Assembly: GCA_020438865.1 (NCBI GenBank)
Contig: JAGQTU010000006.1
Location: forward strand, 25,797-89,796
Direction of reading: 5' to 3'
DNA length: 64,000 nt
From: Mycobacterium sp.
GTDB lineage: Bacteria; Actinomycetota; Actinomycetes; Mycobacteriales; Mycobacteriaceae
Positions 6,466 through 61,695 of the stretch are shown one piece after another. The translations under genes were made by a program, and so were the position numbers. The notes beneath the pieces were generated by a model. That model saw nothing but the letters and a program-made list of their open reading frames with translations, made no database searches and was not told the DNA's origin. Within the stretch, counting starts at the first letter, position 1, and the number at the start of each line of letters is the position of its first letter.

Positions 6466-6858
6466 TCAAGGCGTCTCGAGGATGGCCACCGCGGCGGCGG
6501 TGTCACCCTCGTGCGTCAGCGAGACGTGGATCTGCACGTCGGCCAGATGCTCGGCGATGGCGCCGGTCAGCCGGACCTTGGGCCGGCCCCACATGTCGGT
6601 GATCACCTCGATGTCGCGGTGAATGCCCTCGGGCAGCACCGGGCGCTGCGCGAAACGGGAACCCGACCAGGCCTTGATCACGGCCTCCTTGGCGGCCCAC
6701 CGCGCCGCCAGGTGCCGGGCGGCCACCGAGCTCTTGTCGGCGGCGTCGCGACGCTCGCCGGGGGTGAACGTCGCGGCGAACACCGTTCCCGGCTGGTCCA
6801 CCTGCTCGGCGAAATCGGGAATGGAGACCACATCGATGCCCACGCCGACTATCGCCAC
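6466..6858 (-). CDS. acpS: holo-[acyl-carrier-protein] synthase AcpS
   Basis: A 130-aa phosphopantetheinyl transferase that moves 4'-phosphopantetheine from CoA to the serine of an acyl carrier domain, here most likely the ACP domain of FAS-I, which in mycobacteria has no transferase domain of its own. The two family motifs are present: GVGIDVVSI with Mg-binding Asp9, and RWAAKEAVIKAW with Glu58. It starts nine nucleotides after the fas stop codon, so the enzyme and its substrate are almost certainly cotranscribed. Confidence 0.95.
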   Translation of the reverse strand: MAIVGVGIDVVSIPDFAEQVDQPGTVFAATFTPGERRDAADKSSVAARHLAARWAAKEAVIKAWSGSRFAQRPVLPEGIHRDIEVITDMWGRPKVRLTGAIAEHLADVQIHVSLTHEGDTAAAVAILETP

Positions 6859-6867
6859 GCCGGAACC

Positions 6868-9800
6868 CTAGCGCACGTAGGTATCACCGTCGCCAAGACG
6901 CGACGCCGGGTCGAGCAGCATCGCCGCCTCCTGACGCTTCTCCGGCAGGTCGTGGTCGAACCGGCGATCGGCGGGCTTTTCGTACATCGGCCGCCCGCCG
7001 GCGATGGCCGCGACCAGCCTGCGCTGTCCGGCCAGCACCCGCTCCCGGGCCCGCCGCGTGTAGTCGTCCCGCTCCTCGGCACCGAGTGCGGCCAGGAACG
7101 CCTGCGGATGCACCAGGGCGATCAGACCGGACACGTGGCCGAAGCCGAGGCTGGTCACCAGGCCCGCCTTGAGCGGGAACTTCCCGCCCAGCCGCAGGGT
7201 CTCGCGCGGCCAGACGAAGTGCGCCGAGGTGGCCAGTTCGTCGTCGACGCAGTCCAGGCTGCGGTTCGGCGGGATGACGCCGTCGCGCAGGATCTGGCAC
7301 AGCCCCATCATCTGGAAGACCGCCGCCCCGCCCTTGGCGTGGCCGGTGAGGCTCTTCTGCGACACGATGAACAGCGGGGCCCCGGCCGAGCGGCCCATCG
7401 AGTCGGCCAGCCGCTCGTGCAACTCGGTCTCGTTGGGGTCGTTGGCCAGCGTCGAGGTGTCGTGCTTGGAGATCACCGCGATGTCGTCGGGTCCCACGCC
7501 CAGCTTGGCCAGCGAGCGGGCCAGCACCGAATCGCGCCCGCCGCGGCCGGCGCCCAGGGCACCGAGGCCCGGCGCCGGGATCGAGGTGTGCACACCGTCG
7601 GCGAAGCTCTGCGCGTATCCGACCACGGCCAGCACCGGCAGACCCATCTTCAGCGCCAGGTCGCCGCGAGCCAGCAGCACGGTGCCACCGCCCTGGGCCT
7701 CCAGGAAGCCCAGGCGTCGACGGTCGTTGGCGCGGGAGAACTTCGCGTCACTGATGCCCTTGGAGCGCATCATCTCGGTGTCGGCGGTGGCCGCCATGTC
7801 ACCGAAGCCGATGACCGCCTCCAGCGTCAGGTCGTCGAACCCGCCGGCGACCACGAGCTCGGCCTTGCCGAGGCGGATCTTGTCCATCCCCTCCTCGACC
7901 GACACCGCCGCGGTGGCGCACGCACCGACCGGGTGGATCATCGAGCCGTAGCTGCCGACGTAGGACTGGATCACATGTGCGGCAACGACGTTGGGCAGGA
8001 CCTCCTGCAGGATGTCGTTCGGCTTGGCCACCCCCAGCAGGTTGCCGTGGTACATCGTCTGCATCGACGTCATGCCGCCCATGCCGGTGCCCTGGGTGCT
8101 GGCCACCAGGCTCGGGTGCACCCAGCGCATCAACTCCTCCGGGGTGAAGCCCGAGGACAGGAACGCGTCGACGGTGGCGACGATGTTCCACAGCGCCACC
8201 CGGTCGATGGAGCCGGCCATGTCCGGGGTGATGCCCCAGACCGTCGGGTCGAAGCCGGTCGGGATCTGCGCACCCACCGTCCGCGACAGCTTGGTCTTGC
8301 GGGGGACGCGAATCTCGGTGCCCGCCTTGCGGATCACCTCCCAGTCCGCCGAGTCGGGAACCGGACGCGCGACGGTGTGTTCCGGATCGACCTCCACGAA
8401 CGCGCGGGCCTCGGCCTCCGAGGACACCACGAAGGTGAAGTCCTTGTCGAGGAAGACACTGACCAGCAGCGGCGAGGCGTGATCCGCCCCGATGGCGCCG
8501 TCGTCGACGAACTCCCGGATGCCGCACCGCTCCACGACCACGTCGTGATACCGCTCGACCAGGTCCGCCTCGTCGACCAGCTCACCGCTGGCGGTGTCGT
8601 ACCACCCCGGCTTGGGATCGTCCTCCCACTTGATCAGGCCGGTGGTCCAGGCCAGTTCGAGCACGCCGGCGGCGGACAGTTCGTTGTCGACCTCCATCTC
8701 GAAGCGGGTGCGCGACGAGCCGTACGGACCGAGTTCGGCGCCACCGACGATGACCACCAGGTCGGCCGGGTCGACGTCGAGGTCGGCCCAGTCGGGCGCG
8801 GGAGCGGGCCGGTGGCCGCGCGGCGGGGACGGCAGCGCGGCGATGGTGCCTGCGGCCGGCGCGTCCCCGGCGGCCTCCGATTCACTGGTCATCTCCTCGC
8901 GGGCCTTGGCGGCCAGCTCGGCCATGTCGAGCTCGATGTCGCCGAGCCCGCCGGTCAGGTCCACCTTCAGCGGGGTGTGCGCGGCGGCGACCTTGGCCTC
9001 GACCGTGCACAGGTCGAGCAGCATCGCGGCCATCTCCGCCGTCGTGTAGGTGGTCACGCCGGCCTCTTCGACAGCACCGACGATGGCGTCGTTGTGGCCC
9101 ATCAGGCCGGTGCCCTTGGTCCAACCGATCAGCGCGTGCGCGAAGCTGACCCGCTGCGCCCAGGAGGCCTCGGCGTTCCAGCGGTTGACCACCGCGTCGA
9201 GCGCGGACTTGGATTCGCCGTAGGCGCCGTCGCCGCCGAACATGCCGCGGTTCGGCGAACCGGGCAGCACCACATGCAGCCGTGAGGCGATGTCGCGTTC
9301 GGCGCCGATCGACGACAGCCCGCCGACCAGTCGCTCGACCGCCCACAGCAGGACCTTCATCTCCATCTCGGAGCGCGAGCCGGCCTCCGACATGTCACCG
9401 GCCACCCGCGGTGCGGCGAACGGGAACAGCAGCGTGGGCGTCTGCGCGTCCTTGATGTGAATCGATTGCGGCCCAAGGCTTTCCGACTGTTCGCTGCCGA
9501 CCCAGGACACCAACGCGTCGATGTCGGCGTAGGAGGCCATGTTGGCCGGGACCACCCACAGCGCCGCGCCGTAGCGGGCGTGATCGCGGTAAAGCGACTT
9601 GTAGAAGTCCAGCCGGTCGTCGTCGAGCCGAGACGTCGTGGCGATCACCGTCGCGCCCCCGTCGAGCAGCTGGCCGACCACCGATGCCGCGATCGACCCC
9701 TTCGACGCGCCGGTGACGACGGCCACCTCGTCGGAATAGCGCCCGGTTCCCGGGTTTTCGGCACCGGCGGCGATCCGCCCGAACAGCGAGGCGTGGATGG

Positions 9801-12800
9801 TCCGACCGGCCGCCAGGGCCTTGCCCTGCCACCAGGTGGCCTGGGTGGCCACGGTGTGGCCGGCGCCCTCGAAGCGCTCCGAGAGCCGCACCCAGTCGGC
9901 GTCGACGTCACCCTCGTCGGCCAGCCACAGCTTGACCAGATCCTCGCGCGCACTGGCCCAACGGTCGTCGAGCAGCACCGCCTTGCGCCCGTCGAAGGAC
10001 GGGGCAACCAGTCGCGGCCAGTCCGAGCCCAGCTCGGCGGTCACCAGGTCGATCAGCTCGGCGTCGGTGGCCGCCGGCTGCGCGGTCTCCGGATTGTCCA
10101 GGCCGAGCTGGCCCAGCACCATCCGGGCCGCCGTGGCCAGCACACCGTCGCGACCGGTCACCTTCTCGGCGAACTCGCCTAGGGCGGCCGAGTCGACCAC
10201 ACCGCCACCGCCACCGCCGGCCGACGGGAGCGCGACGGCGATGCCCTTGCGGGCCGCCACCGAGGCGACCGCCGCGTCGATGGCCTTGTCCACGGCGGCG
10301 GCGTCGGCAAGCGCACCCTCGTGCAGCCCACCGAGGCTGCCGCCACGCACGCTGGCGCCCTCGCGGGTGCCCAGCGCGAGCTCGGCGGTGACGTGCTTGG
10401 CCCAGCCGTCTCCCAACTCCCAGGTCTTCTTGACCCGCTCGGCGATGGCGGCGGGCCGCTTGCCGGACGGGCCGAGCACGGTACGCAGCTGGTCGTTGAT
10501 GGCGTCGGAGAGCACCGGACCGAACGGCTTGTAGGTCCGGGCGAGCTTGGACACCTGACCCTTCAGCGAGTTCAGGTCGGCCTCGGCGGCGCCGTCGATG
10601 GCGCCGAGGTTCAGCTCGGACCCGAGATCCACCAGCAGCTGGTTGCGCCGCGAGGACGCCCCGTCGGTGATCGACTCGATGGAGTCCAGCGGCTCGATCT
10701 GGTCGATGCGCATCTTGGCGCTCAACGCGATCAACGCCAGGGTGGCATCGCCGGCGTCGAAGACGATGTCCTCGGGGCGCGGAGCGCCGGCGGGCGCGAC
10801 ATTGGGCGACGGGCCACCGGTGGGGGCAGCGGCGGGAGCCGGTGCCGGTGCGGCCTCCGCCGCAGCGGGCGCTGCCTCGGCGGCGGGCGCCTCGGCGACC
10901 GGCTCGTCGTCCGGCTCCGGATCGGTGTCGGTCGCGAACAGCACCGCGGCGTCCCGCTCGGCGTTGAGCACTTCCACTGTGCTGTGGGCGTATTCGGGCA
11001 GCTTCAGGGTGTTACTCGCCAGGCCGGCGACGGTCGGTGCGGACTTCACCCCGATCTCCACGAAGCGCTCGACGCCCAGGCCGCCCGCGGCCTCCTCGAT
11101 GAACAGCAGGTCCTGGGTTTCGATCCAGCGCACCGGGCTGGCGAACTGCCAGGCCAGCAGTTCGATGACGACCTTGCGACACAACTCGTGCGGCTTCTCG
11201 TTGCGCCAGGTGTCGTAGTCGGCGAGCACCTCGTCGAGCGGTTCGGCGGGCACCAGGTCACGGATCTCCTGAATGAATTCGCGGTCCAGGGTGAACGGCC
11301 GGGGCACCAGGTTCGGGATGTAGCGCCCGATGATCAGGTTCGGGTCGGCGTCGCGGGGCATGACGCGGTCCAGCGAGCGGCGGAACTCGTCGACACCCAC
11401 GCGCAGCACGCTGGAGTGGAACGGCACGTCGATACCGGGCACCAGGATGAAGGAGCGCTTGCCGCCGGAGATCTCGCGACGCCGCTCCACCTCCTCCTCG
11501 AGGGCCTCCAGGCCGCGCACAGTACCGGCGATCGCGTACTGCGAGCCGCGCAGGTTGAAGTTCACGATCTGCAGGAATTCCCCGGTGCGCTCGGAGATCT
11601 CGGCGACGAAGCCGGTGACCTCGGCGTCGGGCAGGTCGATCTGCGACGGGCGGATCGCGGCCAACCGGTAGTTGGACCGGCCCATCTCGTCACGGGGAAC
11701 GATGTCGTGCATCTTGCTGCCGCGGTGGAACACCACCTCGAGCAGCGCCTCCAGCTCGTAGACCCCGGACACACACGCCAGGGCGGTGTACTCGCCCACG
11801 GAGTGGCCGCAGGCGATGGCGCCCTCGACGAAGGCGCCCTGCTCGCGCATCTCGGCGACCTGGGCGGCCGCCACGGTGGCCATCGCCACCTGGGTGAACT
11901 GCGTCAGGTACAGCACGCCCTCGGGGTGCTGGTAGTGCACGCCGCCGGCGATCAGGCTGGTCGGGTTGTCCCGCACCACGTGCAGCACCGAGAAGCCGAG
12001 GGTTTCGCGGGTGAACTTGTCGGCGGTGTCCCACACCTTGCGGGCCGCTTTGGAGCGGGCACGGACCTCCATGCCCATGCCCTTGTGCTGGATGCCCTGG
12101 CCGGGGAAGGCATAGACGGTCTTCGGCGCCGCCAGCCGGGCGGTGGCGCTCATCACCAGATCGGAGCTCGCGCCACTCCCCCCAGTCGCTTCGCTCCCGC
12201 CCCGCCGGGCCTTGGCGGTGACCTCCAAAACCTCTGCGCCGAGATCGATTCCGACCCGGTCGACCCGGAAGTCGATCTCGTCACCCGGCTTGACCATGCC
12301 CAGGAAGCGGGCGGTCCAGCCGAGCAGCTTGGCGGGTGGGACCGGCCTGCCGTCGGTGGCGGTGACGACGTGCTGGGCCGCGGCCGACAGCCACATCCCG
12401 TGCACGATCGGCGAATCCAGGCCCGCCAGCAGGGCGGCAGCCTGATCGGTGTGGATCGGGTTGTGGTCACCGGAGACCACCGCGAACGGCCGCATGTCGA
12501 CCGGCGCGGTGATGGTGACGTCGCGGCGGCGCCGGCGCGGGGTGTCGGTGGCGTTCTCCGACACCGCTCCCCCGGCGCGAACCGGGTCGGTCAGTTCGAC
12601 CGAGCCGGTGCGGCCGCGGATCGCGAATCGCTCCTCGAGGACCGCCAGGATGATGCCGTTCGCGTCGGTCACGTTCACGGTGACCGGAACGACGCGGCCG
12701 ACCTCGGTGTCGGTGGCGACCGAAGCCGTTGCGGTTACCCGCAATTGGGTCTTGTCCTTGGGCAGCGGCTTGAGCAGCTGCGCGGCGTGGTCAAGGTGCA

Positions 12801-13998
12801 CCAGGCTGAGCAGGCCCTCGACGACCGGGAATCCGGTGTCGGTGACCGCGCCGCCGATCGCGGCGAACACCGCGGGCCAGCAGCGGCCGACCAGGGCATC
12901 CGGAACGATGGAAAGGGTTGGGGCCAGCGGTGATCCGAACGTGGCCGTCACACCGGTGTGGTCGGCGACCCGCTCGGGGTCCCACTCCACGGTGACGGTG
13001 GTGGAGCCGCCCGTCACGGGGGGCAGCGCGGCGGGTCCGTCGACCCCGGCGGCGATGGCCAGCACCGCACGCATCGCGGCGGCCGCGTCCTCGGTGCGGA
13101 CCACCGGCGCTCCGCCGTCGACGACGGTGGCCGGCAGCGTGAAGGCGATGTCGATCCAGGTGCCCGACAGCGGGACGCTCAGCACGACCCGGTCGGGAGC
13201 GGTGACTTCCAGGCGGGCGCCGGTGGAATGATTTGTCGCGCTGCCGAATTCCCGGTTCGCTTCGCCCCTGCCCTCCGAACGGTTGTCGTGCACCAGCCAC
13301 TCCGACGGCGCGGCGATGCGGTGCACCGGGTTGGTGGCGGTGCGACCGGCCCACAACACGTCCGGAGAGTCCAGCACGATCGCCAGCGGGCCGGTCGCAT
13401 CGGTACGAACCTGCAACCGGGAGGCGACCGGCGTGGGAGCGGAGCCCGCGGCCAGCGCCTGGTCGACGGCAGCCTTCTCGAAGCGGTCGAGCAGGTCGCC
13501 CACCGGCTCGTCGACCCGCGTGATGCCGGCGACCGCCGCCGTGCCGGGGATGACGCAGACCTGATCGGCGCTGTAGCGCGCGTCGTGGGCCTGCCACAGC
13601 GAGTCGCTGCGCCACCAGCGGCGGACATCCTTGTCGATCACCGGGACGAAGTTGACCGGCTTGCCCAGCGTCTTGCACAGCTCGATGAAGAACGGCACAT
13701 CGGCCGGGTGCAGCACGACCGCCGCGGCGTCGGGATATTCGGCCAGCAGCGCGGCGATCGCCTGATCGGGGTTCTCCAGCAGCCGGTCACCGTCGGCCGA
13801 TTCGGCGTCGAACCGGGTCTCGATCGGGCCGACGTCGGCCGGGTTCAACCGGGCCTCCGCGCGCTGCAGCATCGCGGCGAACCGGTCGCGCCAGCTGATG
13901 TCCAGCCACGGTGAGCCCTCGGCCTTGGTGTCGGCGGTGCTGTCGCCGTCGCCGATCGCCAGCTCGACGTAGCGCTGCAGCCACTGCAGGTAGGTCAT
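6868..13998 (-). CDS. fas: type I fatty acid synthase, C-terminal part (DH-MPT-ACP-KR-KS), frameshifted from its 5' part
   Basis: About 2,377 codons of FAS-I lie in a different frame from the first 698 codons. Domains in order: MaoC-like dehydratase (VVSGDHNPIH, near 12.46 kb); malonyl/palmitoyl transferase (GHSVGEY, near 11.80 kb); ACP with the DGASS phosphopantetheine-serine motif near 10.66 kb; ketoreductase (VVTGASKGS, near 9.71 kb); ketosynthase with active Cys at codon 7918-7920 (PVGACATAAVS) and histidine motif LTGHAKGG. The frame stays open upstream to 14277, but the homologous sequence begins about 14036 (TAKPYFGDVAEMTY). The start given is the first in-frame ATG after the 5' ORF's stop, usable only if translation restarts. 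In an intact gene this would be one protein of about 3,100 aa making C16-C26 acyl-CoAs. Confidence 0.9.
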   Translation of the reverse strand: MTYLQWLQRYVELAIGDGDSTADTKAEGSPWLDISWRDRFAAMLQRAEARLNPADVGPIETRFDAESADGDRLLENPDQAIAALLAEYPDAAAVVLHPADVPFFIELCKTLGKPVNFVPVIDKDVRRWWRSDSLWQAHDARYSADQVCVIPGTAAVAGITRVDEPVGDLLDRFEKAAVDQALAAGSAPTPVASRLQVRTDATGPLAIVLDSPDVLWAGRTATNPVHRIAAPSEWLVHDNRSEGRGEANREFGSATNHSTGARLEVTAPDRVVLSVPLSGTWIDIAFTLPATVVDGGAPVVRTEDAAAAMRAVLAIAAGVDGPAALPPVTGGSTTVTVEWDPERVADHTGVTATFGSPLAPTLSIVPDALVGRCWPAVFAAIGGAVTDTGFPVVEGLLSLVHLDHAAQLLKPLPKDKTQLRVTATASVATDTEVGRVVPVTVNVTDANGIILAVLEERFAIRGRTGSVELTDPVRAGGAVSENATDTPRRRRRDVTITAPVDMRPFAVVSGDHNPIHTDQAAALLAGLDSPIVHGMWLSAAAQHVVTATDGRPVPPAKLLGWTARFLGMVKPGDEIDFRVDRVGIDLGAEVLEVTAKARRGGSEATGGSGASSDLVMSATARLAAPKTVYAFPGQGIQHKGMGMEVRARSKAARKVWDTADKFTRETLGFSVLHVVRDNPTSLIAGGVHYQHPEGVLYLTQFTQVAMATVAAAQVAEMREQGAFVEGAIACGHSVGEYTALACVSGVYELEALLEVVFHRGSKMHDIVPRDEMGRSNYRLAAIRPSQIDLPDAEVTGFVAEISERTGEFLQIVNFNLRGSQYAIAGTVRGLEALEEEVERRREISGGKRSFILVPGIDVPFHSSVLRVGVDEFRRSLDRVMPRDADPNLIIGRYIPNLVPRPFTLDREFIQEIRDLVPAEPLDEVLADYDTWRNEKPHELCRKVVIELLAWQFASPVRWIETQDLLFIEEAAGGLGVERFVEIGVKSAPTVAGLASNTLKLPEYAHSTVEVLNAERDAAVLFATDTDPEPDDEPVAEAPAAEAAPAAAEAAPAPAPAAAPTGGPSPNVAPAGAPRPEDIVFDAGDATLALIALSAKMRIDQIEPLDSIESITDGASSRRNQLLVDLGSELNLGAIDGAAEADLNSLKGQVSKLARTYKPFGPVLSDAINDQLRTVLGPSGKRPAAIAERVKKTWELGDGWAKHVTAELALGTREGASVRGGSLGGLHEGALADAAAVDKAIDAAVASVAARKGIAVALPSAGGGGGGVVDSAALGEFAEKVTGRDGVLATAARMVLGQLGLDNPETAQPAATDAELIDLVTAELGSDWPRLVAPSFDGRKAVLLDDRWASAREDLVKLWLADEGDVDADWVRLSERFEGAGHTVATQATWWQGKALAAGRTIHASLFGRIAAGAENPGTGRYSDEVAVVTGASKGSIAASVVGQLLDGGATVIATTSRLDDDRLDFYKSLYRDHARYGAALWVVPANMASYADIDALVSWVGSEQSESLGPQSIHIKDAQTPTLLFPFAAPRVAGDMSEAGSRSEMEMKVLLWAVERLVGGLSSIGAERDIASRLHVVLPGSPNRGMFGGDGAYGESKSALDAVVNRWNAEASWAQRVSFAHALIGWTKGTGLMGHNDAIVGAVEEAGVTTYTTAEMAAMLLDLCTVEAKVAAAHTPLKVDLTGGLGDIELDMAELAAKAREEMTSESEAAGDAPAAGTIAALPSPPRGHRPAPAPDWADLDVDPADLVVIVGGAELGPYGSSRTRFEMEVDNELSAAGVLELAWTTGLIKWEDDPKPGWYDTASGELVDEADLVERYHDVVVERCGIREFVDDGAIGADHASPLLVSVFLDKDFTFVVSSEAEARAFVEVDPEHTVARPVPDSADWEVIRKAGTEIRVPRKTKLSRTVGAQIPTGFDPTVWGITPDMAGSIDRVALWNIVATVDAFLSSGFTPEELMRWVHPSLVASTQGTGMGGMTSMQTMYHGNLLGVAKPNDILQEVLPNVVAAHVIQSYVGSYGSMIHPVGACATAAVSVEEGMDKIRLGKAELVVAGGFDDLTLEAVIGFGDMAATADTEMMRSKGISDAKFSRANDRRRLGFLEAQGGGTVLLARGDLALKMGLPVLAVVGYAQSFADGVHTSIPAPGLGALGAGRGGRDSVLARSLAKLGVGPDDIAVISKHDTSTLANDPNETELHERLADSMGRSAGAPLFIVSQKSLTGHAKGGAAVFQMMGLCQILRDGVIPPNRSLDCVDDELATSAHFVWPRETLRLGGKFPLKAGLVTSLGFGHVSGLIALVHPQAFLAALGAEERDDYTRRARERVLAGQRRLVAAIAGGRPMYEKPADRRFDHDLPEKRQEAAMLLDPASRLGDGDTYVR

Positions 13999-14008
13999 CT
14001 CCGCGACG

Positions 14009-14040
14009 TCACCGAAGTACGGCTTGGCGGTCGGCGCCGA
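14009..14040 (-). other. fas: frameshift with apparent small deletion in fas, end of ER domain
   Basis: Reading the minus strand, the 5' frame gives GRSQLGAD and then reaches TGA (14009-14011) after six more codons (RQAVLR). The family sequence resumes in another frame as TAKPYFGDV a few bases after GAD. In related FAS-I proteins, and by analogy in the yeast FAS ER domain, a segment of roughly 35-40 residues lies between these two blocks (from memory), so a stretch not divisible by three appears to be missing, not just one base. Confidence 0.8.
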
Positions 14041-16105
14041 GCTGGCTGCGCCCGGATGCCATGCCGCCCTGGGCCGTTCCGGCCCCGACCCACTGGTCGG
14101 TGCCGGCGGTCTCGACGAGTAACTGCTTGACGGCCGGTGATGTGGTGGCCTCCAGGCAGGCCATCGCCGCCGTGCCGACCAGGATGCCGTCAACCGGCAT
14201 CTGCGGGTAGCCGTACGCCTCCGACCAGCGGCCGGACAGATACTCGGCGGCCCGCTCAGGGGTGCCGATGCCGCCACCGACGCAGACCGTGATATTCGAT
14301 CGCGACCGCAGTTCCGAGTAGGTGCTCAGCAGCAGGTCGTCGAGGTCCTCCCAGGAGTGGTGGCCACCGGCGCGGCCGCCCTCGATGTGGGCGATGACCG
14401 GCTTGGTGGGCACCTCGGCGGCGATCCGGATGACCGACCGGATCTGCTCGACGGTGCCGGGTTTGAAGCAGACGTGGGCGATGCCGATGCCGTTGAGCTC
14501 GTCGATCAGCGCGACTGCTTCCTCGAGTTCGGGGATCCCCGCGCTGACCACCACACCGTCGATCGGCGCGCCCGACTGCCGGGCCTTCTGTACCAGGCGC
14601 TTACCGCCCAGCTGCAGCTTCCACAGGTAGGGGTCCAGGAACAGCGAGTTGAACTGGATGGCACGGCCCGGCTCGAGCAGGTTCTCCAGCTCGGCTATGC
14701 GCTTGTCGAAGATCGCCTCGGTGACCTGTCCGCCGCCGGCCAGCTCGGCCCAGTGGCCGGCGTTGGCCGCCGCGGCGACGATCTTGGCGTCGACGGTGGT
14801 GGGGGTCATGCCGGCCAGCAGGATCGGCGACCGGCCGGTGAGGCGGGTGAACTTCGTCGACAGCTTCACCGAGCCGTCGGGCAGGGTGACGACCGACGGC
14901 GCGTAGCTCGACCACGGCCGGGCCACCTCGGGCACCGCCCCGACGGTGAACAGGTTGCGCTGACCACCGCGGGTGGCGGCCGGCACGATCCCGATGCCCA
15001 GGCCACGGATGACCGGCGCGGTGAGGCGGGTCAGGATGTCGCCCGGGCCCAGATCGAGAATCCAGCGGGCGCCGGCGTCGTGCAGGGCGGTCACCTCGTC
15101 GACCCAGTCCACCTGCTTGACCAGGATGGCCTCGGTCATGGCCCGGGCCAGTTCCACGTCCAGCCCGACCGCCTCGGCCCAGCGCCCCACGATGTCGATG
15201 CCGTCGGCCAGCCGGGGGGTGTGGAACCCGACCTCGACCGCGACCGGGTCGAACACCGGGCTGAACACCGCACCGCCGCGCACCTTGCTCTTGCGCTCGG
15301 CGGCCTCGGCCTCGGCGATCTGCTCGCAGTACAGCTCGAATCGGGACAGCTGTTCGGGGGTACCGGTGATGACCACCGAGCGGCGGCCGTTGCGGATCGA
15401 CAGCACCGGCGGCAGCACGGTGCGGACGTCCTTGGCGAACTCCTGGAGCAGCTCGTAGATGCGCTCGGGCTCAGCGTTGGTGACCGAAACCATGGGCGGG
15501 CGGTCGCCGAGCACCGAAATGCCGCGGCGGCGAGCCACCAGGGTGCCGGCGGCCCCGATCAGCTGGGCGAGGGCCAGCAGCTGGACGTCCTCGGCGCCAC
15601 CGGCCCGCAGGGCCTCGACGGCCAGCACACCCTGGGAGTGGCCGGCCACGGCCACCGGCGGGGTGGCGGTCAGATCCATGCCCTGGCGGGCCAGGGCGCG
15701 GATGGCGGCGATCTGGGTGAGCAGCACACCGGGCACCGACACCGCGGCCGAGGTCAGCTGTTTGGCCGACGGCACCGGCTCCTCGGCAGCCAGCAGGCGA
15801 ACCCAGCGCAGCGGCTCGAAGCCGATGGGACGGACCACGACCAGTTCCTTGGCCACCGGCTCGAGCAGCAGCTCGGCCTCACCGGCCAGCGTCGCCAGCT
15901 CCGATTCGATACCGGCCGAGGTCACCAGCTCCTCGAGGGTCTCCAGCCACGCGCTGCCCTGCCCGCCGAAGGCAACGGCATACGGTTCACCAGCATTGAG
16001 ACGGTCGACCAGCGCGTGGGTGGTGCTCTGCGGGGCATCACCCCGTTCCGAGCCCCGTCCCGACCCGTCGCCCGTGGACAGCCTGTCGTGCTCGTGGATC
16101 GTCAC
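14009..16105 (-). CDS. fas: type I fatty acid synthase, N-terminal part (AT-ER), truncated by frameshift
   Basis: 698 codons carrying the acetyltransferase domain (GHSQG nucleophile motif, Ser157) and the FMN-type enoyl reductase domain (LLAGMTPTTVDAKIV from about residue 425; AHIEGGRAGGHHSWED; CVGGGIGTPERAAEYL). The last homologous residues are QGGMASGRSQLGAD; the next six codons are out of the true frame. The GTG start at 16105 has GAGGGAG about 12 nt upstream. Together with the 3' part this is the mycobacterial FAS-I gene, usually a single polypeptide of about 3,070-3,100 aa. FAS-I is regarded as essential in mycobacteria, so an artefact must be considered before inactivation. Confidence 0.9.
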   Translation of the reverse strand: MTIHEHDRLSTGDGSGRGSERGDAPQSTTHALVDRLNAGEPYAVAFGGQGSAWLETLEELVTSAGIESELATLAGEAELLLEPVAKELVVVRPIGFEPLRWVRLLAAEEPVPSAKQLTSAAVSVPGVLLTQIAAIRALARQGMDLTATPPVAVAGHSQGVLAVEALRAGGAEDVQLLALAQLIGAAGTLVARRRGISVLGDRPPMVSVTNAEPERIYELLQEFAKDVRTVLPPVLSIRNGRRSVVITGTPEQLSRFELYCEQIAEAEAAERKSKVRGGAVFSPVFDPVAVEVGFHTPRLADGIDIVGRWAEAVGLDVELARAMTEAILVKQVDWVDEVTALHDAGARWILDLGPGDILTRLTAPVIRGLGIGIVPAATRGGQRNLFTVGAVPEVARPWSSYAPSVVTLPDGSVKLSTKFTRLTGRSPILLAGMTPTTVDAKIVAAAANAGHWAELAGGGQVTEAIFDKRIAELENLLEPGRAIQFNSLFLDPYLWKLQLGGKRLVQKARQSGAPIDGVVVSAGIPELEEAVALIDELNGIGIAHVCFKPGTVEQIRSVIRIAAEVPTKPVIAHIEGGRAGGHHSWEDLDDLLLSTYSELRSRSNITVCVGGGIGTPERAAEYLSGRWSEAYGYPQMPVDGILVGTAAMACLEATTSPAVKQLLVETAGTDQWVGAGTAQGGMASGRSQLGADRQAVLR

Positions 16106-23634: not shown

Positions 23635-26241
23635 CTACCGCGGCAATCGGCCGCCGTGGCTGAATCGCGCTGCCCGCCGGTGGATTCGGTGCTCGACCCC
23701 GCGGCTGCGCTCGGCGGGGACCATCCGCACCGGCTCGGCGTAGAACACCACCTTGGTGATCTCCACCAGCACCAGGTAGGCCACCACGAACAGGGCCAGC
23801 GCCCCGAAGAACTGCCACGGCAGCGCCGTGAAGCCCAGCGCGTGCGCCAACGGTGACACGGTCAGGGCAATCCCAATCACGATGACCGTGCAGGTGGTCA
23901 GCACCAGCCAGCCCCCCGGGCGGCTGCGCAGGAACGGGATTCGCCGCGTGCGGATCGCGAAGATGATCAGCGTCTGGGTGGCCAGCGACTCGACGAACCA
24001 GCCGGTGCGGAACTCGACCGGGCCGGCGTGCAGCACGCCGAGCATCAGCCCGAACGTCAGGAAGTCGAACAGCGAGCTGATCGGACCGAAGGTCAGCATG
24101 AAGCGGCGGATGAACGCGATGTTCCAATGCGACGGTGCGTGCAACTGCTCGTCGTCGACCCGGTCGGTCGGGATGGCCAATTGCGAGGTGTCGTAGAGCA
24201 GGTTGTTCAGCAGGATCTGGCTCGGCAGCATGGGCAGGAAGGTCAGCACCGCCGAGGCGGCCGCCGCGGAGAACATGTTGCCGAAGTTGCTCGACGTGCC
24301 CATCAGCACGTACTTGATGGTGTTGGCAAAGATCCGGCGACCCTCGGCGACGCCGGTGGCGAGCACCCCGAGGTCCTTCTCCAGCAGCACCACGTCGGCG
24401 GCGTCCTTGGCCACGTCGGTGGCGGTGTCCACCGAGATGCCGACATCGGCCGAGTGCAGCGCCAGCGCGTCGTTGACCCCATCGCCGAGGAAGCCCACCG
24501 AGCGTCCGGTGCGGCGCAGCACGCTGATCAGCCGCGCCTTCTGTTCCGGCGAGATCCGGGCGAACACCGTTGATTCGCGCGCCGCCGCCTCGAATCCCGC
24601 ATCGCCCAGCCCGTCGAGCTGCGCCCCGGTCACAATGCCGCGGGAGACCAATCCCAAATCAGCGCAGACCTTTTCGGCAACCGCCGCGTTGTCGCCGGTC
24701 GCGACCTTCACCTCGATACCCAGGCCGGCCAGCTCCGCCAACGACGCCCGGGCGGCCTGCTTGGGCGGGTCGGCGAACACCAGGAAGCCGTCCAGTCGCA
24801 GGCCGGTCTCGTCGGCGGGGTCGATGGCGGTCAACTCCGGGGCGGGCCTGCTCGCCACCGCCACCACCCGGCGGCCGTCGGCGAACAGCCGATCCAGAAC
24901 CGCGGTCTGCGGCACCTCGACGCAGTGCTCGATCACCTGTTCGGGGGCGCCCTTCACGATGAGCACCCGGCCGTGCGCATCGTCGACGAGCGCCGAGCAC
25001 GCCCGCCGCTGGTGGTCGAAGGGCAGTTCGCCGATCCGGCGCGCACCCGCCGTGACCATCCGGCGCCCGGCATCGGAATCCCACAGCGCGGCGTCCATCT
25101 CGTTGGCGCTGGTTCCCCCGATGCGCGGATCGACATCGGTGGCCAACAGCCCGGTGCGCAGAACCCATTCCGAGGGCGCACCCGACGGGTCGATCGCCTC
25201 GACGAGGGTGATTCGGCCCTCGGTCAGGGTGCCCGTCTTGTCGGTGATCAGGATGTCGATGTCGCCCAGGTCCTCGATGCACACCAACCGCTTGACCAGA
25301 ACCTTGAGGTTGGCCAACCGCCGTGATCCGGTGGCGAGGCTGGTGCTGACCACCGCGGGCAGCAGTTGCGGGGTGATGCCGACCGCGATCGCCAGCGCGA
25401 ACAGCACCGAGTCGATCACCGGGCGGCGCAGCAACAGGTTGGTGACCAGGATCAGCACGGTCAGCGTCATCGCCACCTGCAGCAGCAGATAGGAGAAGCG
25501 GCGCAACCCGACCTGGAAGTCGGTCTCGGGTTGGCGCTCTCCCAAACCCGCGGCGATCCTGCCGAACTGCGCGCTGAGCCCGGTGGCGTAGACGACGGCG
25601 GTGGCATCACCGGCACTGACTACGGTCCCCATGAACGCCAGGTCGTCGGCGTCGGCGAGGTCCACGCCGTTCCGCGCCGGAGCCGCCGATTTCTCGGTGG
25701 CGGTGGACTCCCCGGTCAGGATGCTCTCGTTGCATTCCAGGCCGTTCACGGTGATCAGCCGCACGTCGGCGGGAACCAGTTCACCCAGGGTCAGTTGGAT
25801 GACGTCGCCCGGAACCAGCGCGTTGACGTCGAGTTTGACGTAGCGCCCGTCGCGGCGGGCAAGGGCAGTGTGCCGCACCCTCGAATGCAGTGCGGCGCTG
25901 GCCCGTTCGGCCCGGTACTCGTTGAGGAATCCGAGGCCGATGCTGACCACCAGGATGATGCCGATGATGACGGCCTGGGTGGCGTCGCCGAGGAAGAACG
26001 ACACCACCGCGGTCACCGCCAGCAGGATCAGCACCGCGTTGTTGAGCTGCCGGCGTAGCACCCCCCAGGCGCTGACCCGATGGGTGCGAAGCGAATTCGG
26101 TCCCACGCGGGCCAGCCGGGCGGCCGCCTCCGCGCTCGTCAGCCCGCCGGTGGTGGTCTCCAGCCGCCCCAGGACGTCGGCCAGTGGCGCGGCGGCGACG
26201 ACGGGGACGGTCAGCGCACGGTCATCCTCGATCGCCGTCAC
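23635..26241 (-). CDS. P-type ATPase, magnesium-importing type (MgtA-like)
   Basis: An 868-aa membrane ATPase. Phosphorylation motif DKTGTLT (Asp334), actuator motif LTGESTATEKS and hinge GDGVNDALALHSADVG are intact, with four N-terminal and about six C-terminal membrane helices. The C-terminal region (HAGPVEFRTGWFVESLATQT) fits the type III Mg2+ importers. The GTG at 26241 overlaps the last 20 nt of the PEP synthase gene, so both sit in one operon with the Rv2004c-like gene. Confidence 0.87.
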   Translation of the reverse strand: MTAIEDDRALTVPVVAAAPLADVLGRLETTTGGLTSAEAAARLARVGPNSLRTHRVSAWGVLRRQLNNAVLILLAVTAVVSFFLGDATQAVIIGIILVVSIGLGFLNEYRAERASAALHSRVRHTALARRDGRYVKLDVNALVPGDVIQLTLGELVPADVRLITVNGLECNESILTGESTATEKSAAPARNGVDLADADDLAFMGTVVSAGDATAVVYATGLSAQFGRIAAGLGERQPETDFQVGLRRFSYLLLQVAMTLTVLILVTNLLLRRPVIDSVLFALAIAVGITPQLLPAVVSTSLATGSRRLANLKVLVKRLVCIEDLGDIDILITDKTGTLTEGRITLVEAIDPSGAPSEWVLRTGLLATDVDPRIGGTSANEMDAALWDSDAGRRMVTAGARRIGELPFDHQRRACSALVDDAHGRVLIVKGAPEQVIEHCVEVPQTAVLDRLFADGRRVVAVASRPAPELTAIDPADETGLRLDGFLVFADPPKQAARASLAELAGLGIEVKVATGDNAAVAEKVCADLGLVSRGIVTGAQLDGLGDAGFEAAARESTVFARISPEQKARLISVLRRTGRSVGFLGDGVNDALALHSADVGISVDTATDVAKDAADVVLLEKDLGVLATGVAEGRRIFANTIKYVLMGTSSNFGNMFSAAAASAVLTFLPMLPSQILLNNLLYDTSQLAIPTDRVDDEQLHAPSHWNIAFIRRFMLTFGPISSLFDFLTFGLMLGVLHAGPVEFRTGWFVESLATQTLIIFAIRTRRIPFLRSRPGGWLVLTTCTVIVIGIALTVSPLAHALGFTALPWQFFGALALFVVAYLVLVEITKVVFYAEPVRMVPAERSRGVEHRIHRRAARFSHGGRLPR

Positions 26242-28507
26242 GGCCCCGCGCCGACTCGAGCAGCAGCCGCCGCTCGGCAGCGGCCACGTTGCGCCGGGTC
26301 TTCTGAGCGACGTCCGGCGTGACCGAGATCGACGTGATGCCCATCCGCACAAGGTGTTCGGCGAAGTCCGGCCGGCTCGACGGTGCCTGACCACACAGCG
26401 AGGCGGTGATGCCCAGCCTGCGGGCGGTGCCGATGATCCGGCCGATAGCGTCGAGCACCGCGCCGTCGGATTCGTCGTACAGTTCGGCGCACAGGTCGGA
26501 GTCGCGGTCGACGCCCAGCGTCAGCTGAGTCAGGTCGTTGCTGCCGATCGACACCCCGTCGATGCCCATGCCGACGTACTCGGGCAGCCAGTACGCCACC
26601 GAGGGCACCTCGGCCATCACCCAGCGGTGCAGGCCGCGCTGACGGCCCAGTGGGCTGGCGTCGACCAACTCGAGGCACTTCTCCAGCTCCCACTTGGTCC
26701 GGACGAACGGGATCATCAAGTGCAGGTTGGGATTCTGCTCGCGAACCCGGGCCAGCGCCCGCAACTCCAGATCGAACAGGTCCGGGTTACTGACATACCG
26801 ATAGCAGCCGCGATAGCCGATCATCGGGTTGTGCTCTTCGGGCTCGTACTTGTCGCCGCCCTTGAGGTTGCGGAACTCGTTGGTGCGGAAGTCCGAGGCC
26901 CGATAGACCACCGGGCGCGGGGCGAACGCGGCGGCCACCCGGCCGACGGCGGTGGCCAGCGAGTCGACCAGGCTCTCCTGCTCACCGTGCTCGATCAGGT
27001 CGCGGGGATGCCGGTTATTCAGGGCGTCCTCGAGGATCAGCTCGGCGCGCAGCAGGCCCACCCCGTCGACGTCGAGAGCGGCGGCCTGCTCGGCCTTGTC
27101 CGGCATCGCCACGTTGACGTAGATCTTGGTGGCGGTGACCTCGCTGGCGGGGGCGGCCACGACCGCCGTCACGACCGACTCGGTCTGCGCACCACCGACG
27201 GCCCGGCCGGCCAGCACGCGGCCGTGGGTGCCGTCGACGGTGACCACGGTCCCGTCCTTGAGATCCTTGGTGGCGGTGCGGGCGCCGACGATGCAGGGTA
27301 CGCCGAGTTCGCGGGCGACGATGGCGGCGTGACAGGTCATGCCGCCGCTGTCGGTCACCAGCGCCGACGCCCGGCGCATGGTGGGCAGCCAGTCGGGGTT
27401 GGTCATCTGCGCCACCAGCACCTCGCCGTCCTGCAACCGGGCGCCGTCCTTGACGTCGGCGAGTACCCGGACCACACCGGAGGCCTCGCCGGGCACCGCG
27501 GGCAAGCCCTGCAGCAGCACCTCATGGGTCTCCGGCACCGGCTTGCCGACGCGGTGCAGGGTGGTGATCGGGCGGGTCTGCACGATGTAGGTCTTGCCAC
27601 CGGCGATCGCCCATTCGGTGTCCTGCGGGCAGCCCGAGTGCCGCTCGCTGCGCACCGCGATATCGGCGATGGTGCGCACCTCGTCGTCGTTGAGCACCTG
27701 GGCCTCGGCCTCGGCCGGGCTGAGATCGACATTCTGGTCGCTGCCGTCGGCGCCGCGGACGATCTTGAACTGCTTGAAACCGATTCGGCGGGAGATGATC
27801 TCGCCGGTCTCCTTGGACACCACATAGGTGTCGGGCTCAACCGACCCGGACACCACCACCTCACCCTGGCCGAACGCACCCTCCACGACCACCCGGTCGG
27901 TGGCGTCGGTGGTGGGGTCGGCGGTGAAGGCGACACCGGAGCGCTCGGAGGCGATCATCTGTTGGACCACCACCGCCATCGCCGGGTCCGCGGTGAACCC
28001 GCGGCTGGCCCGGTAGGCGACCACCCGGGCCCCGAACAGTGAGGCCCAGCAGCGCTGTACCGCGTCGATCAACTCGTCCTCACCGGAGATGTTGGTGAAG
28101 GTGGAGTTCATCCCCGCGAACGAGGCGTCGGCACCGTCCTCACCGGTAGCCGAAGAGCGCACGGCCACAATCACATTCGGGCCCATAGTCCGGTAGGACG
28201 ACAGGATCCGCTCGCGCACGTCGTCGGACATCCCGGCTTTCAGCACCAGAGCCTGCATCTTCTCGCACATCTCGGTGAACCGATCCTGGTCGGCGACGCT
28301 GCGCATGGCATCGCGGTGCGCGGCATTGAGCTCGTCGGCCACCCCCGCGTCGCGCATGGCGGCCAGGTAGCTGTCACGCAGCACAACGAACCCGAGCGGG
28401 ACCGGAAGGCCGGCGGCCACCATCTCCCCCATGTTGGCGCCCTTGCCGCCGGCCTCCTCGGCGTCGGCCATTCTCAGGTTGGCAATGTCTTCGACGAATC
28501 TCGGCAT
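26222..28507 (-). CDS. ppsA: phosphoenolpyruvate synthase (pyruvate, water dikinase)
   Basis: A 761-aa enzyme that makes PEP from pyruvate and ATP, a gluconeogenic step. The N-terminal ATP-grasp-like domain (GGKGANMGEMVAAGLPVP) is followed by the swivelling phosphohistidine domain (SGGMTCHAAIVAREL, His393) and the C-terminal TIM barrel (SIGSNDLTQLTLGVDRDS). Length matches the family (about 790). GAGGAGAG precedes the ATG. It lies 41 nt after the Rv2004c-like gene, putting it downstream of a candidate DosR box and suggesting use in hypoxic metabolism. Confidence 0.93.
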   Translation of the reverse strand: MPRFVEDIANLRMADAEEAGGKGANMGEMVAAGLPVPLGFVVLRDSYLAAMRDAGVADELNAAHRDAMRSVADQDRFTEMCEKMQALVLKAGMSDDVRERILSSYRTMGPNVIVAVRSSATGEDGADASFAGMNSTFTNISGEDELIDAVQRCWASLFGARVVAYRASRGFTADPAMAVVVQQMIASERSGVAFTADPTTDATDRVVVEGAFGQGEVVVSGSVEPDTYVVSKETGEIISRRIGFKQFKIVRGADGSDQNVDLSPAEAEAQVLNDDEVRTIADIAVRSERHSGCPQDTEWAIAGGKTYIVQTRPITTLHRVGKPVPETHEVLLQGLPAVPGEASGVVRVLADVKDGARLQDGEVLVAQMTNPDWLPTMRRASALVTDSGGMTCHAAIVARELGVPCIVGARTATKDLKDGTVVTVDGTHGRVLAGRAVGGAQTESVVTAVVAAPASEVTATKIYVNVAMPDKAEQAAALDVDGVGLLRAELILEDALNNRHPRDLIEHGEQESLVDSLATAVGRVAAAFAPRPVVYRASDFRTNEFRNLKGGDKYEPEEHNPMIGYRGCYRYVSNPDLFDLELRALARVREQNPNLHLMIPFVRTKWELEKCLELVDASPLGRQRGLHRWVMAEVPSVAYWLPEYVGMGIDGVSIGSNDLTQLTLGVDRDSDLCAELYDESDGAVLDAIGRIIGTARRLGITASLCGQAPSSRPDFAEHLVRMGITSISVTPDVAQKTRRNVAAAERRLLLESARGRDGDRG

Positions 28508-36188: not shown

Positions 36189-36836
36189 ATGGTCACAGTC
36201 TTTCTCGTCGATGACCACGAAGTCGTGCGTCGAGGGCTGATCGACCTGCTCAGCGCCGACCCCGAACTCGACGTCATCGGGGAGGCCGGCTCCGTGGCAC
36301 ATGCGATGGCGCAGATCCCGGCGCTGCGCCCGGACGTCGCGGTGCTCGACGTCCGCCTGCCCGACGGCAACGGGATCGAGCTGTGCCGCGACCTGCTCTC
36401 GAAGATGCCGGACCTGCGCTGCCTGATGCTGACGTCGTTCACTTCCGCCGAGGCCATGCTCGACGCGATCCTGGCCGGTGCCAGCGGATACGTCGTCAAG
36501 GACATCAAGGGCATGGAGCTGGCCAGGGCCATCAAGGATGTCGGGGCCGGCCGCTCGCTGCTGGACAACCGGGCCGCGGCCGCGCTGATGGCCAAGCTGC
36601 GCGGTGCGGCCGAACGGTCCGACCCGCTCTCCGGTCTCACCGAGCAGGAGCGGGTGTTGCTCGGCCTGCTCGGTGAGGGCCTGACCAACAAGCAGATCGC
36701 CGCCCGGATGTTCCTGGCTGAGAAGACAGTGAAGAACTACGTCTCCCGGCTGCTGGCGAAGCTGGGGATGGAGCGCCGCACGCAGGCGGCGGTGTTCGTC
36801 TCCAAACTCGACCAGAGCCATCACCCGGAAGAGTGA
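36189..36836 (+). CDS. devR: DevR/DosR dormancy response regulator
   Basis: A 215-aa NarL/FixJ-family regulator, very close to M. tuberculosis DevR over its length as I recall that sequence (217 aa). Phosphoacceptor Asp54 sits in [10 protein letters not shown]; acidic pair in [10 protein letters not shown]; the C-terminal LuxR-type helix-turn-helix is [27 protein letters not shown] split over about residues 165-191. It activates hypoxia/NO/CO-induced genes by binding DosR boxes, seven candidates for which lie within 16 kb. The devS gene follows after 24 nt. Confidence 0.97.
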
Positions 36837-38594
<1,758 letters not shown>

Positions 38595-60262: not shown

Positions 60263-61498
60263 TCACCAGGTGACGGGTAGTTCGTAGACGCCGTAGGCGA
60301 GCTTGTCGTTCTTGAACGGGATCTCTTCGATCGGTGTCGCCAGGGCCAGCGTCGGGATTCGGCGCAACAGGGTGGCGAAGACGATCTGCAGTTCGGCCCG
60401 GGCCAACTGCTGGCCGACACACTGATGCCGGCCGTACCCGAAGGCGAGGTTCTTGTCGGCATCCGGGCGCTGCAGGTCCAGGCGGTCCGGGTGCGGGAAG
60501 GCTGCGGGATCCCAGTTCGCCGGGTTGAGGTCGATGATGATGCCCTCGCCGGTTTTGATGGTTTCGCCGGCGATGTCGATGTCTTCGGTGGCGACCCGGC
60601 GCTGACCGTTCTGGATGATCGACAGATACCGCAACAGTTCCTCGACGGCGTTGGCGATGACCTTGGGATCGTCGGTATCACGCAGAATCGCCAGCTGTTC
60701 GGGGTTCTCCAGCAGCGCCAGCACCCCGATGCCGATCATGTTGGCGGTCGTCTCGTGACCGGCGATGAGCAGGCCGCTGGCCAGCTGCGCGGCTTCCTTG
60801 ACACTGATCTCCCCGGCGGTGACGCGTTCGGCCAGATCGGAGACCGCGTCCTCGGCCGGATTCTGCATCTTCGTCTCGACGAGGTTGGACAGGTACTTCG
60901 CCAGGCTCATCGCGCCCTTCATGCTGTCCTCGGGCTTGGCGTAACGGGCCAGTCCGACGTTGGCATGCTCCTGGAAGAAACCGTGGTCTTCGTATGGCAC
61001 CCCGAGCATTTCGCAGATCACTTCGGTCGGCACCGGGAGCGCCAGTGCGGTGACCAGTTCGGCGGGCTTCGGGCCGGCCAGGATTGCATCGATTGCGTCG
61101 TCGGTGATCTTCTGGATCGCCGGGCGCAGGCCCTCCACCCGCTTGAAGGTGAACGGCTTGGACAGCATCCGGCGATAGAAGGTGTGCTCTTCGGCATCGG
61201 AGGTGAACACCGACCGGGGCCGCTTGTCGACCGTGGCGAGCATGTGCTCGTTCCAGTGTGGGAAGCCGGACTTGCGGTCATCGACGCTGACCCGGGAGTC
61301 GGCGAACAGCGCGCGGGCCTCCTCGTAGCCGGTGATCAGCCACGGGGTGCTGCCGTCCCAAATCCGCACCCGGCTCAATGGGGCGACGGCGGCCAACTCC
61401 ATCACCTCGGGTGGCGGCGCGAACGGGCACCGCGCCGAGCGTTCCATCGGGTACTCCGGCGCGGCGACCGCCTCCGTTGACGTCACTGTGTCGGACAT
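60263..61498 (-). CDS. cytochrome P450
   Basis: A 411-aa bacterial class I P450. I-helix oxygen motif GLLIAGHETTANM, ExxR in VEELLRYLS and the haem-thiolate loop FGYGRHQCVGQQLARAE are all intact. It should hydroxylate a hydrophobic substrate using electrons from the 3Fe-4S ferredoxin encoded just upstream. The ribosome site GAGGAG overlaps the ferredoxin stop codon. CYP family cannot be assigned by eye. Confidence 0.95.
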   Translation of the reverse strand: MSDTVTSTEAVAAPEYPMERSARCPFAPPPEVMELAAVAPLSRVRIWDGSTPWLITGYEEARALFADSRVSVDDRKSGFPHWNEHMLATVDKRPRSVFTSDAEEHTFYRRMLSKPFTFKRVEGLRPAIQKITDDAIDAILAGPKPAELVTALALPVPTEVICEMLGVPYEDHGFFQEHANVGLARYAKPEDSMKGAMSLAKYLSNLVETKMQNPAEDAVSDLAERVTAGEISVKEAAQLASGLLIAGHETTANMIGIGVLALLENPEQLAILRDTDDPKVIANAVEELLRYLSIIQNGQRRVATEDIDIAGETIKTGEGIIIDLNPANWDPAAFPHPDRLDLQRPDADKNLAFGYGRHQCVGQQLARAELQIVFATLLRRIPTLALATPIEEIPFKNDKLAYGVYELPVTW

Positions 61499-61500
61499 AC

Positions 61501-61695
61501 CTACTCCTCGACTTCGATGGCCTGGGCGGGACATGCCGCCGCAGCGCGGCGCACGTTGTCGGCCTTTTCGGCCGACGGATTCTCGTTGACCAGCACGACC
61601 ACGCCGTCCTCGTCGCGCTGGTCGAACACCGTGGCCGCGTTGAGCACACACTGTCCGGACGAAACACACTTGTCCTGATCGACGGTGACCTTCAT
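61501..61695 (-). CDS. [3Fe-4S] ferredoxin
   Basis: A 64-aa ferredoxin with Cys10, Cys16 and Cys55 (DKCVSSGQCV and AAACPAQAIEV). The second position of the usual cluster motif is Ser, which gives a 3Fe-4S centre, as in actinobacterial P450 partners. Starts seven bases after the TetR gene stop and ends two bases before the P450 ATG. Confidence 0.95.
   Translation of the reverse strand: MKVTVDQDKCVSSGQCVLNAATVFDQRDEDGVVVLVNENPSAEKADNVRRAAAACPAQAIEVEE

What the first reader, a model, noticed from the sequence alone, without database searches (positions are those of the whole stretch)
13998..14040. fas is split by a frameshift with an apparent internal deletion at the ER domain end
The sequence goes from QLGAD to TAKPYFGDV across a frame change, while FAS-I homologues (and yeast FAS by analogy) have roughly 35-40 residues in between. 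FAS-I is considered essential in mycobacteria. Either the assembly lost about 100 nt, or this strain makes two chains (AT-ER and DH-MPT-ACP-KR-KS) by stop-restart: TGA at 14009 is followed 10 nt later by an ATG at 13998.
Basis: partly seen in the sequence, partly recalled or inferred. Interest (0 to 1): 0.72.

Follow-up and report, generated by a model that had tools for sequence, protein, structure and literature searches.

The report
Mycobacterial fatty acid synthase gene break
In this draft genome the one gene for a large enzyme that mycobacteria need to make fatty acids lacks a short, strongly conserved stretch and is cut in two; this is most likely an assembly error rather than a new two-part enzyme.

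Summary
The fas gene (minus strand, 16105 to 6868) is a FAS-I gene with a single lesion at 14031-14029. There it lacks 116 nt relative to all 138 relatives' loci tested (116 distinct sequences). Each of them has exactly 114 nt (38 codons, no stop) where the window's two frames overlap by 2 nt. The missing 38 residues gave no match elsewhere in the genome, although the same query finds them in 14 of 14 control genomes. No second fas copy was found.

The stop-restart idea is not supported. The ATG at 13998 is an internal Met in 114 of 116 relatives, and the out-of-frame TGA occurs in 24 of 116. The break cuts one helical domain, PF08354, in the middle.

FAS-I is reported essential (PMC5356441, passages). 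The assembly has 366 contigs and N gaps. I judge a local assembly error most likely (0.75) and a real inactivating deletion second (0.18). A working two-chain FAS is unlikely (0.04). Against artefact: fas is the only clear break among 88 genes compared, and no reads could be examined.

The parts
14012..16105 (-). Front piece of fas: 698 codons, of which 692 are native (AT region and most of ER, to QLGAD) and the last 6 are read in a foreign frame
   Evidence: PDB 4v8v aligned 1-695; Pfam FAS_AT_central, SAT and PF08354 profile positions 1-127
14029..14031 (-). The join: last codon of QLGAD and first codon of TAKPYFG overlap by 2 nt in different frames; 116 nt absent relative to every relative tested
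14009..14011 (-). TGA that ends the front frame; an out-of-frame triplet in 24 of 116 intact relatives
13996..13998 (-). ATG proposed as restart; an internal Met codon in 114 of 116 relatives (CTG and TTG in the other two)
6868..13998 (-). Rear piece of fas: 2376 codons from the ATG (rest of PF08354, MaoC-type DH, acyltransferase, ACP, ketoacyl synthase), open to its stop; homology begins at 14031
   Evidence: first 499 residues align to PDB 4v8v from residue 744
6466..6858 (-). acpS-like gene (4'-phosphopantetheinyl transferase) directly downstream, the neighbour expected in a fas-acpS operon
   Evidence: Pfam PF01648 E 2.5e-15; fas-acpS operon of M. smegmatis in PMC5356441 (passages)

Best explanation
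An ordinary mycobacterial FAS-I gene that is damaged only in this assembly. About 116 nt at the end of the ER region were lost when the contig or scaffold was put together (a short-overlap join, a gap closed too tightly, low coverage or a mixture of strains), while the organism carries an intact single-chain fas. Shown: the exact loss, its absence from every relative tested, no copy of the segment found elsewhere in the held genome, and the scaffolded, incomplete state of the assembly. Inferred: that the organism's own DNA is intact, and which assembly step failed, since no reads could be examined.
For: Length and content of the missing segment are invariant: 138 of 138 loci, 116 distinct, have 114 nt without a stop, and 31 of 38 residue columns are at least 95% identical, against 27 of 38 flanking columns counted. 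The first 232 residues of the rear piece find a match at E 0.001 or better in 389 of 396 genomes of the genus and in 361 of 361 good ones (counts include the window's own genome; a few matches are weak or partial); the 7 without a match are 72-84% complete. FAS-I is essential in M. smegmatis, and added palmitic or oleic acid did not rescue the knock-down (stated as data not shown; PMC5356441, passages seen). No second fas and no stray copy of the segment was found (14 of 14 controls positive). The lesion is the only one in about 9.2 kb. G000 has 366 contigs, 90.9% completeness and 4.2% contamination, four N runs in the 355,508 bases examined, one beginning right after the window's last base, and no 16S match (its control rang in 9 of 14 named genomes, so this is weak). 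Broken fas frames with no N in the fetched stretch and no contig end also occur in three other assemblies, each at a different place: G009 (= M. litorale F4), G316 and G181. Errors made during assembly account for many apparent pseudogenes (PMC11017572, abstract seen).
Against: The join itself holds no N, and the assembly is not full of frame breaks. Of 88 G004 genes compared, which lie on three of the five contigs sampled (92,115 nt aligned), fas is the one clear break; a second candidate is a spurious upstream extension of the G004 frame, and a third (C110, near 83.6 kb) is unresolved. The run of identity at the join is 2 nt against 92 of 116 relatives and 9 nt against 5 of 116. In a background from five relatives, 2 nt or more arises at about 17% of positions, so the join points to no mechanism. 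One relative's segment (L031) has no unusual hairpin (z 1.05). A loss of 116 nt is larger than the usual one-base error. The broken frames in other assemblies could themselves be real mutations; their reads were not seen either.
Confidence: 0.75

Rival explanations
1. A real, recent 116-nt deletion in the sequenced strain or in part of the population inactivates fas. The cell lives on stored or external fatty acids, or the allele is a minority or dying one.
For: The join is clean, without N, and is the only clear break among 88 genes compared. The rest of the gene is intact, as expected for a very young mutation.
Against: Only one fas was found here, and the rear piece of fas was found in 361 of 361 good genomes of the genus, the window's own included. 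fas knock-down stops M. smegmatis growth and added fatty acids did not rescue it (PMC5356441, passages). A null allele should not come to dominate an assembly (inference).
Confidence: 0.18
2. A functional two-chain FAS: the front piece (AT plus most of ER) ends at the TGA and the rear piece restarts at the ATG 10 nt later; both assemble into a working complex, like the alpha and beta chains of fungi.
For: TGA and ATG lie 10 nt apart, and both pieces are long open frames. Fungal FAS is made of two chains (PMC2791871, start of abstract seen in the listing).
Against: 38 strongly conserved residues are gone (49 counting the 11 before the ATG). The cut lies inside PF08354, leaving profile positions 1-127 in one piece and 193-353 in the other. 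The ATG is an internal Met in 114 of 116 relatives and the nucleotides before it are ordinary codons. None of 138 relative loci shows a split at this place.
Confidence: 0.04

Closest known systems
Mycobacterial type I fatty acid synthase (M. smegmatis FAS, PDB 4v8v/4v8w; M. tuberculosis FAS-I, PDB 6gjc; organism names of the entries recalled, 6gjc taken to be the structure of PMC6155276)
   Same: The front piece matches 4v8v residues 1-695, and the first 499 residues of the rear piece match 744-1233. acpS lies directly downstream.
   Different: Lacks 38 residues at the end of the ER region and changes frame there.
Fungal FAS, beta subunit (e.g. PDB 2uv8, 4v58)
   Same: The front piece and the beginning of the rear piece match the beta chain on either side of the break.
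   Different: The fungal beta chain runs through this site in one piece: in 2uv8_G the front piece matches to residue 852 and the rear piece from residue 936 of the same chain. The window's split is therefore not the fungal one.
Apparent pseudogenes produced by assembly (Cooley and Wright 2024, PMC11017572; abstract seen)
   Same: A gene expected to be intact is broken by a frame change in a draft assembly.
   Different: A loss of 116 nt instead of a one-base error or internal stop; the assembly is otherwise fairly clean in the genes compared.

Membership tests
Mycobacterial FAS-I | Sequence collinear with solved mycobacterial FAS-I on both sides of the break | tested here: met
   phmmer E 0 (front piece) and 3.7e-239 (first 499 residues of the rear piece) to 4v8v
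Mycobacterial FAS-I | Set of catalytic domains | tested here: inconclusive
   Pfam shows AT, DH (MaoC), an MPT-type acyltransferase, ACP, KS and the two parts of PF08354; no Pfam hit for KR at E 0.001. The rear frame aligns to G004 fas through to its end.
Mycobacterial FAS-I | One uninterrupted chain of about 3,100 residues | tested here: not met
   Frames of 698 and 2,469 codons, out of phase, in this assembly
Mycobacterial FAS-I | Complete ER region, including the conserved 38-residue segment | tested here: not met
   Segment absent from the gene and without a match in G000 at E up to 10
Mycobacterial FAS-I | acpS next to fas | tested here: met
   ACPS domain at 6466-6858, same strand
Two-chain FAS, fungal style | Break at the chain boundary of the fungal enzyme | tested here: not met
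   The fungal beta chain is continuous across this site (2uv8_G matched to 852 and again from 936)
Two-chain FAS, fungal style | Both chains made and assembled | not testable with these tools
   Needs proteomics
Assembly artefact | Reads disagree with the consensus at the join | not testable with these tools
   No reads available

The most novel reading that the evidence does not exclude
This lineage really carries a shortened, split FAS-I whose two chains together make fatty acids without the end of the ER-side helical domain: a natural two-chain mycobacterial FAS-I, of which my one literature search on a frameshifted fas gave no example.
Probability: 0.04. Interest if true: 0.7.

Novelty: not a real feature. 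Interest (0 to 1): 0.1.

Why it matters
If taken at face value it would contradict the essentiality of a drug-target enzyme and suggest a split FAS-I. As a probable assembly loss, it warns that the longest genes in draft mycobacterial genomes can look broken when they probably are not. Three other assemblies in the genus show fas frame breaks with no N in the fetched stretch and no contig end, each elsewhere in the gene.

Tried and rejected
Segment moved elsewhere in the genome: one search seemed to find it at window 12355-12468 on the plus strand, but I had taken the query from the wrong strand and place of L002. One search exposed this: the query was the antisense of another part of fas, and relatives match it at the homologous place. 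The corrected query found nothing, with 14 of 14 controls positive.

Second fas copy: none found.

Other frame breaks near by: candidates at 24.0, 36.8, 46.5 and 61.5 kb, and a weak one at 16.7-17.0 kb (42-68% identity), were each supported by one of the four reference genomes only. Pfam shows an intact P-type ATPase frame (23635-26394), an intact response regulator and GAF/histidine kinase pair (36189-38594), and a P450 on the opposite strand (60263-61669), which dispose of three. The one at 46.5 kb has no Pfam match in either frame; that one and the 16.7-17.0 kb one are unresolved.

Long direct repeats or a hairpin as cause: the identity at the join is 2 nt against 92 of 116 relatives (9 nt against 5), and the hairpin z-score of one relative's segment is 1.05.

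RNA element: no Rfam match in 13500-14500 at the gathering score.

Structure prediction of a relative's ER region (L031, 20 sequences) was of low confidence (mean pLDDT 54.6) and is not used.

Literature: one search for a frameshifted mycobacterial fas (terms mycobacteri, fas gene, frameshift, fatty acid synthase) returned 1 paper, by title and abstract start on transcriptomes (listing only). I make no claim that such a case is not in print.

Change made on checking: one search was added, which confirmed the fas frame break in G009 (no N in its 140,000 fetched bases) and placed the N run of G296 at its break.

Full report
What is there. [quoted passage not shown] The front frame (14009-16105, 698 codons) matches M. 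smegmatis FAS (4v8v; organism recalled) residues 1-695 at E 0. Its last native motif is QLGAD, ending at 14030; six foreign codons and TGA (14011-14009) follow. The rear frame has TAKPYFGDV starting at 14031 and stays open to 6868; its first 499 residues from the ATG at 13998 match 4v8v 744-1233 at E 3.7e-239, and the rest aligns without interruption to the fas of G004. The two frames overlap by 2 nt. An acpS-like gene lies directly downstream, as expected.

How much is missing. I placed the end of the front piece and the start of the rear piece separately on relatives by tblastn. In one search, 109 of 109 relative loci had exactly 114 nt between the two motifs, in frame and without a stop (105 distinct). 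With 29 further loci, 138 of 138 (116 distinct) had 114 nt; the only two rows with another value, -2, were the window itself (L001, L143). The window therefore lacks 116 nt. In the segment, 31 of 38 residue columns are at least 95% identical across the 116, against 27 of 38 flanking columns counted. No length variation at all was seen at this place in the relatives tested.

Is the segment elsewhere? Not found. The 38-residue segment of G004 gives no match in the 4.96 Mb genome at E up to 10, whereas the same search finds it in 14 of 14 other genomes at E 7.6e-16 or better. Front piece and first part of the rear piece each match once. An earlier apparent copy on the other strand came from my own wrong-strand query and is withdrawn.

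Is the stop-restart an evolved device? The evidence says no. The ATG at 13998 is an internal Met codon in 114 of 116 relatives; the TGA is an out-of-frame triplet present in 24 of 116; the nucleotides before the ATG are ordinary codons, mostly for Ala or Gly and then Glu or Asp in relatives. Pfam PF08354 is cut in the middle, with positions 1-127 in the front piece and 193-353 in the rear. Fungal FAS beta chains are continuous across this site. Even a perfect restart would leave 49 residues missing (38 plus 11 before the ATG).

Real or artefact? For artefact: the first 232 residues of the rear piece were found in 361 of 361 good genomes of the genus and 389 of 396 in all, the window's genome included. 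FAS-I is essential in M. smegmatis, with no rescue by palmitic or oleic acid (PMC5356441, passages seen); PMC6155276 also calls it essential in M. tuberculosis (passages seen). The gene has no other lesion. The assembly has 366 contigs and 90.9% completeness, no 16S match (the control rang in 9 of 14 named genomes, so this is weak), and four N runs in 355,508 bases examined, one starting at the base after the window's end. Of the 150 matches listed (hand count; 149 relatives plus the window; 389 matched, the list was cut), 18 relatives had an open frame under 2,900 codons. I looked at five of these: two had frame breaks inside fas with no N in the fetched stretch and no contig end (G316, G181), one had a run of N at its break (G296), one stopped aligning 177 nt before a contig end (G268), and one ended in fas sequence in inverted orientation at its contig end (G085). 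M. litorale F4 (G009) also has fas in two frames, changing near residue 228 in window numbering, with no N in the region. Broken fas frames thus occur in at least three other assemblies, at different places; whether those are errors was not tested.

Against artefact: compared with G004, only fas is a clear break among 88 genes, which lie on three of the five contigs sampled (92,115 nt aligned). The join has no N. Identity at the join is 2 nt against 92 of 116 relatives and 9 nt against 5 of 116, where the background from five relatives gives 2 or more at about 17% of positions, so neither a slipped repeat nor a short-overlap join is shown. One relative's segment has no special hairpin.

Verdict. 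The most likely cause is loss of the stretch in assembly (0.75), then a real inactivating deletion in the sequenced cells (0.18); a functional two-chain enzyme is unlikely (0.04). Only reads, a PCR product or another genome of the species can decide.

Noticed in passing
window 64000 (G000:C333:89796): The window's last base is directly followed by a run of 10 N in the contig, a scaffold gap.
   Followed up: partly
L004/L032 (M. litorale F4, CP019882.1; G009): This complete genome has fas in two overlapping frames, with a frame change near residue 228, probably a sequencing error or a further broken copy.
   Followed up: partly
L173 (G316) and L174 (G181): Two near-complete assemblies have fas frame breaks at other places (G004 numbering): residues 63/64 and 1256-1279 in one, 1814-1862 in the other.
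   Followed up: partly
L177 (G085:C65): The contig end carries fas sequence in inverted orientation over fas residues 1390-1573, an assembly-like palindrome.
   Followed up: no
L182 3355-4846 (G000:C110): An acyl-CoA dehydrogenase frame with 97% identity to G004 follows an N-terminal stretch of 75% identity in another frame; possible second frame break or a misplaced start.
   Followed up: partly
window 6871-13998: Pfam reports a 'DNA polymerase beta N-terminal domain' (PF18094) at residues 207-319 of the rear piece, well above its cut-off; it lies in the FAS region before DH, so the family name looks misleading here.
   Followed up: no
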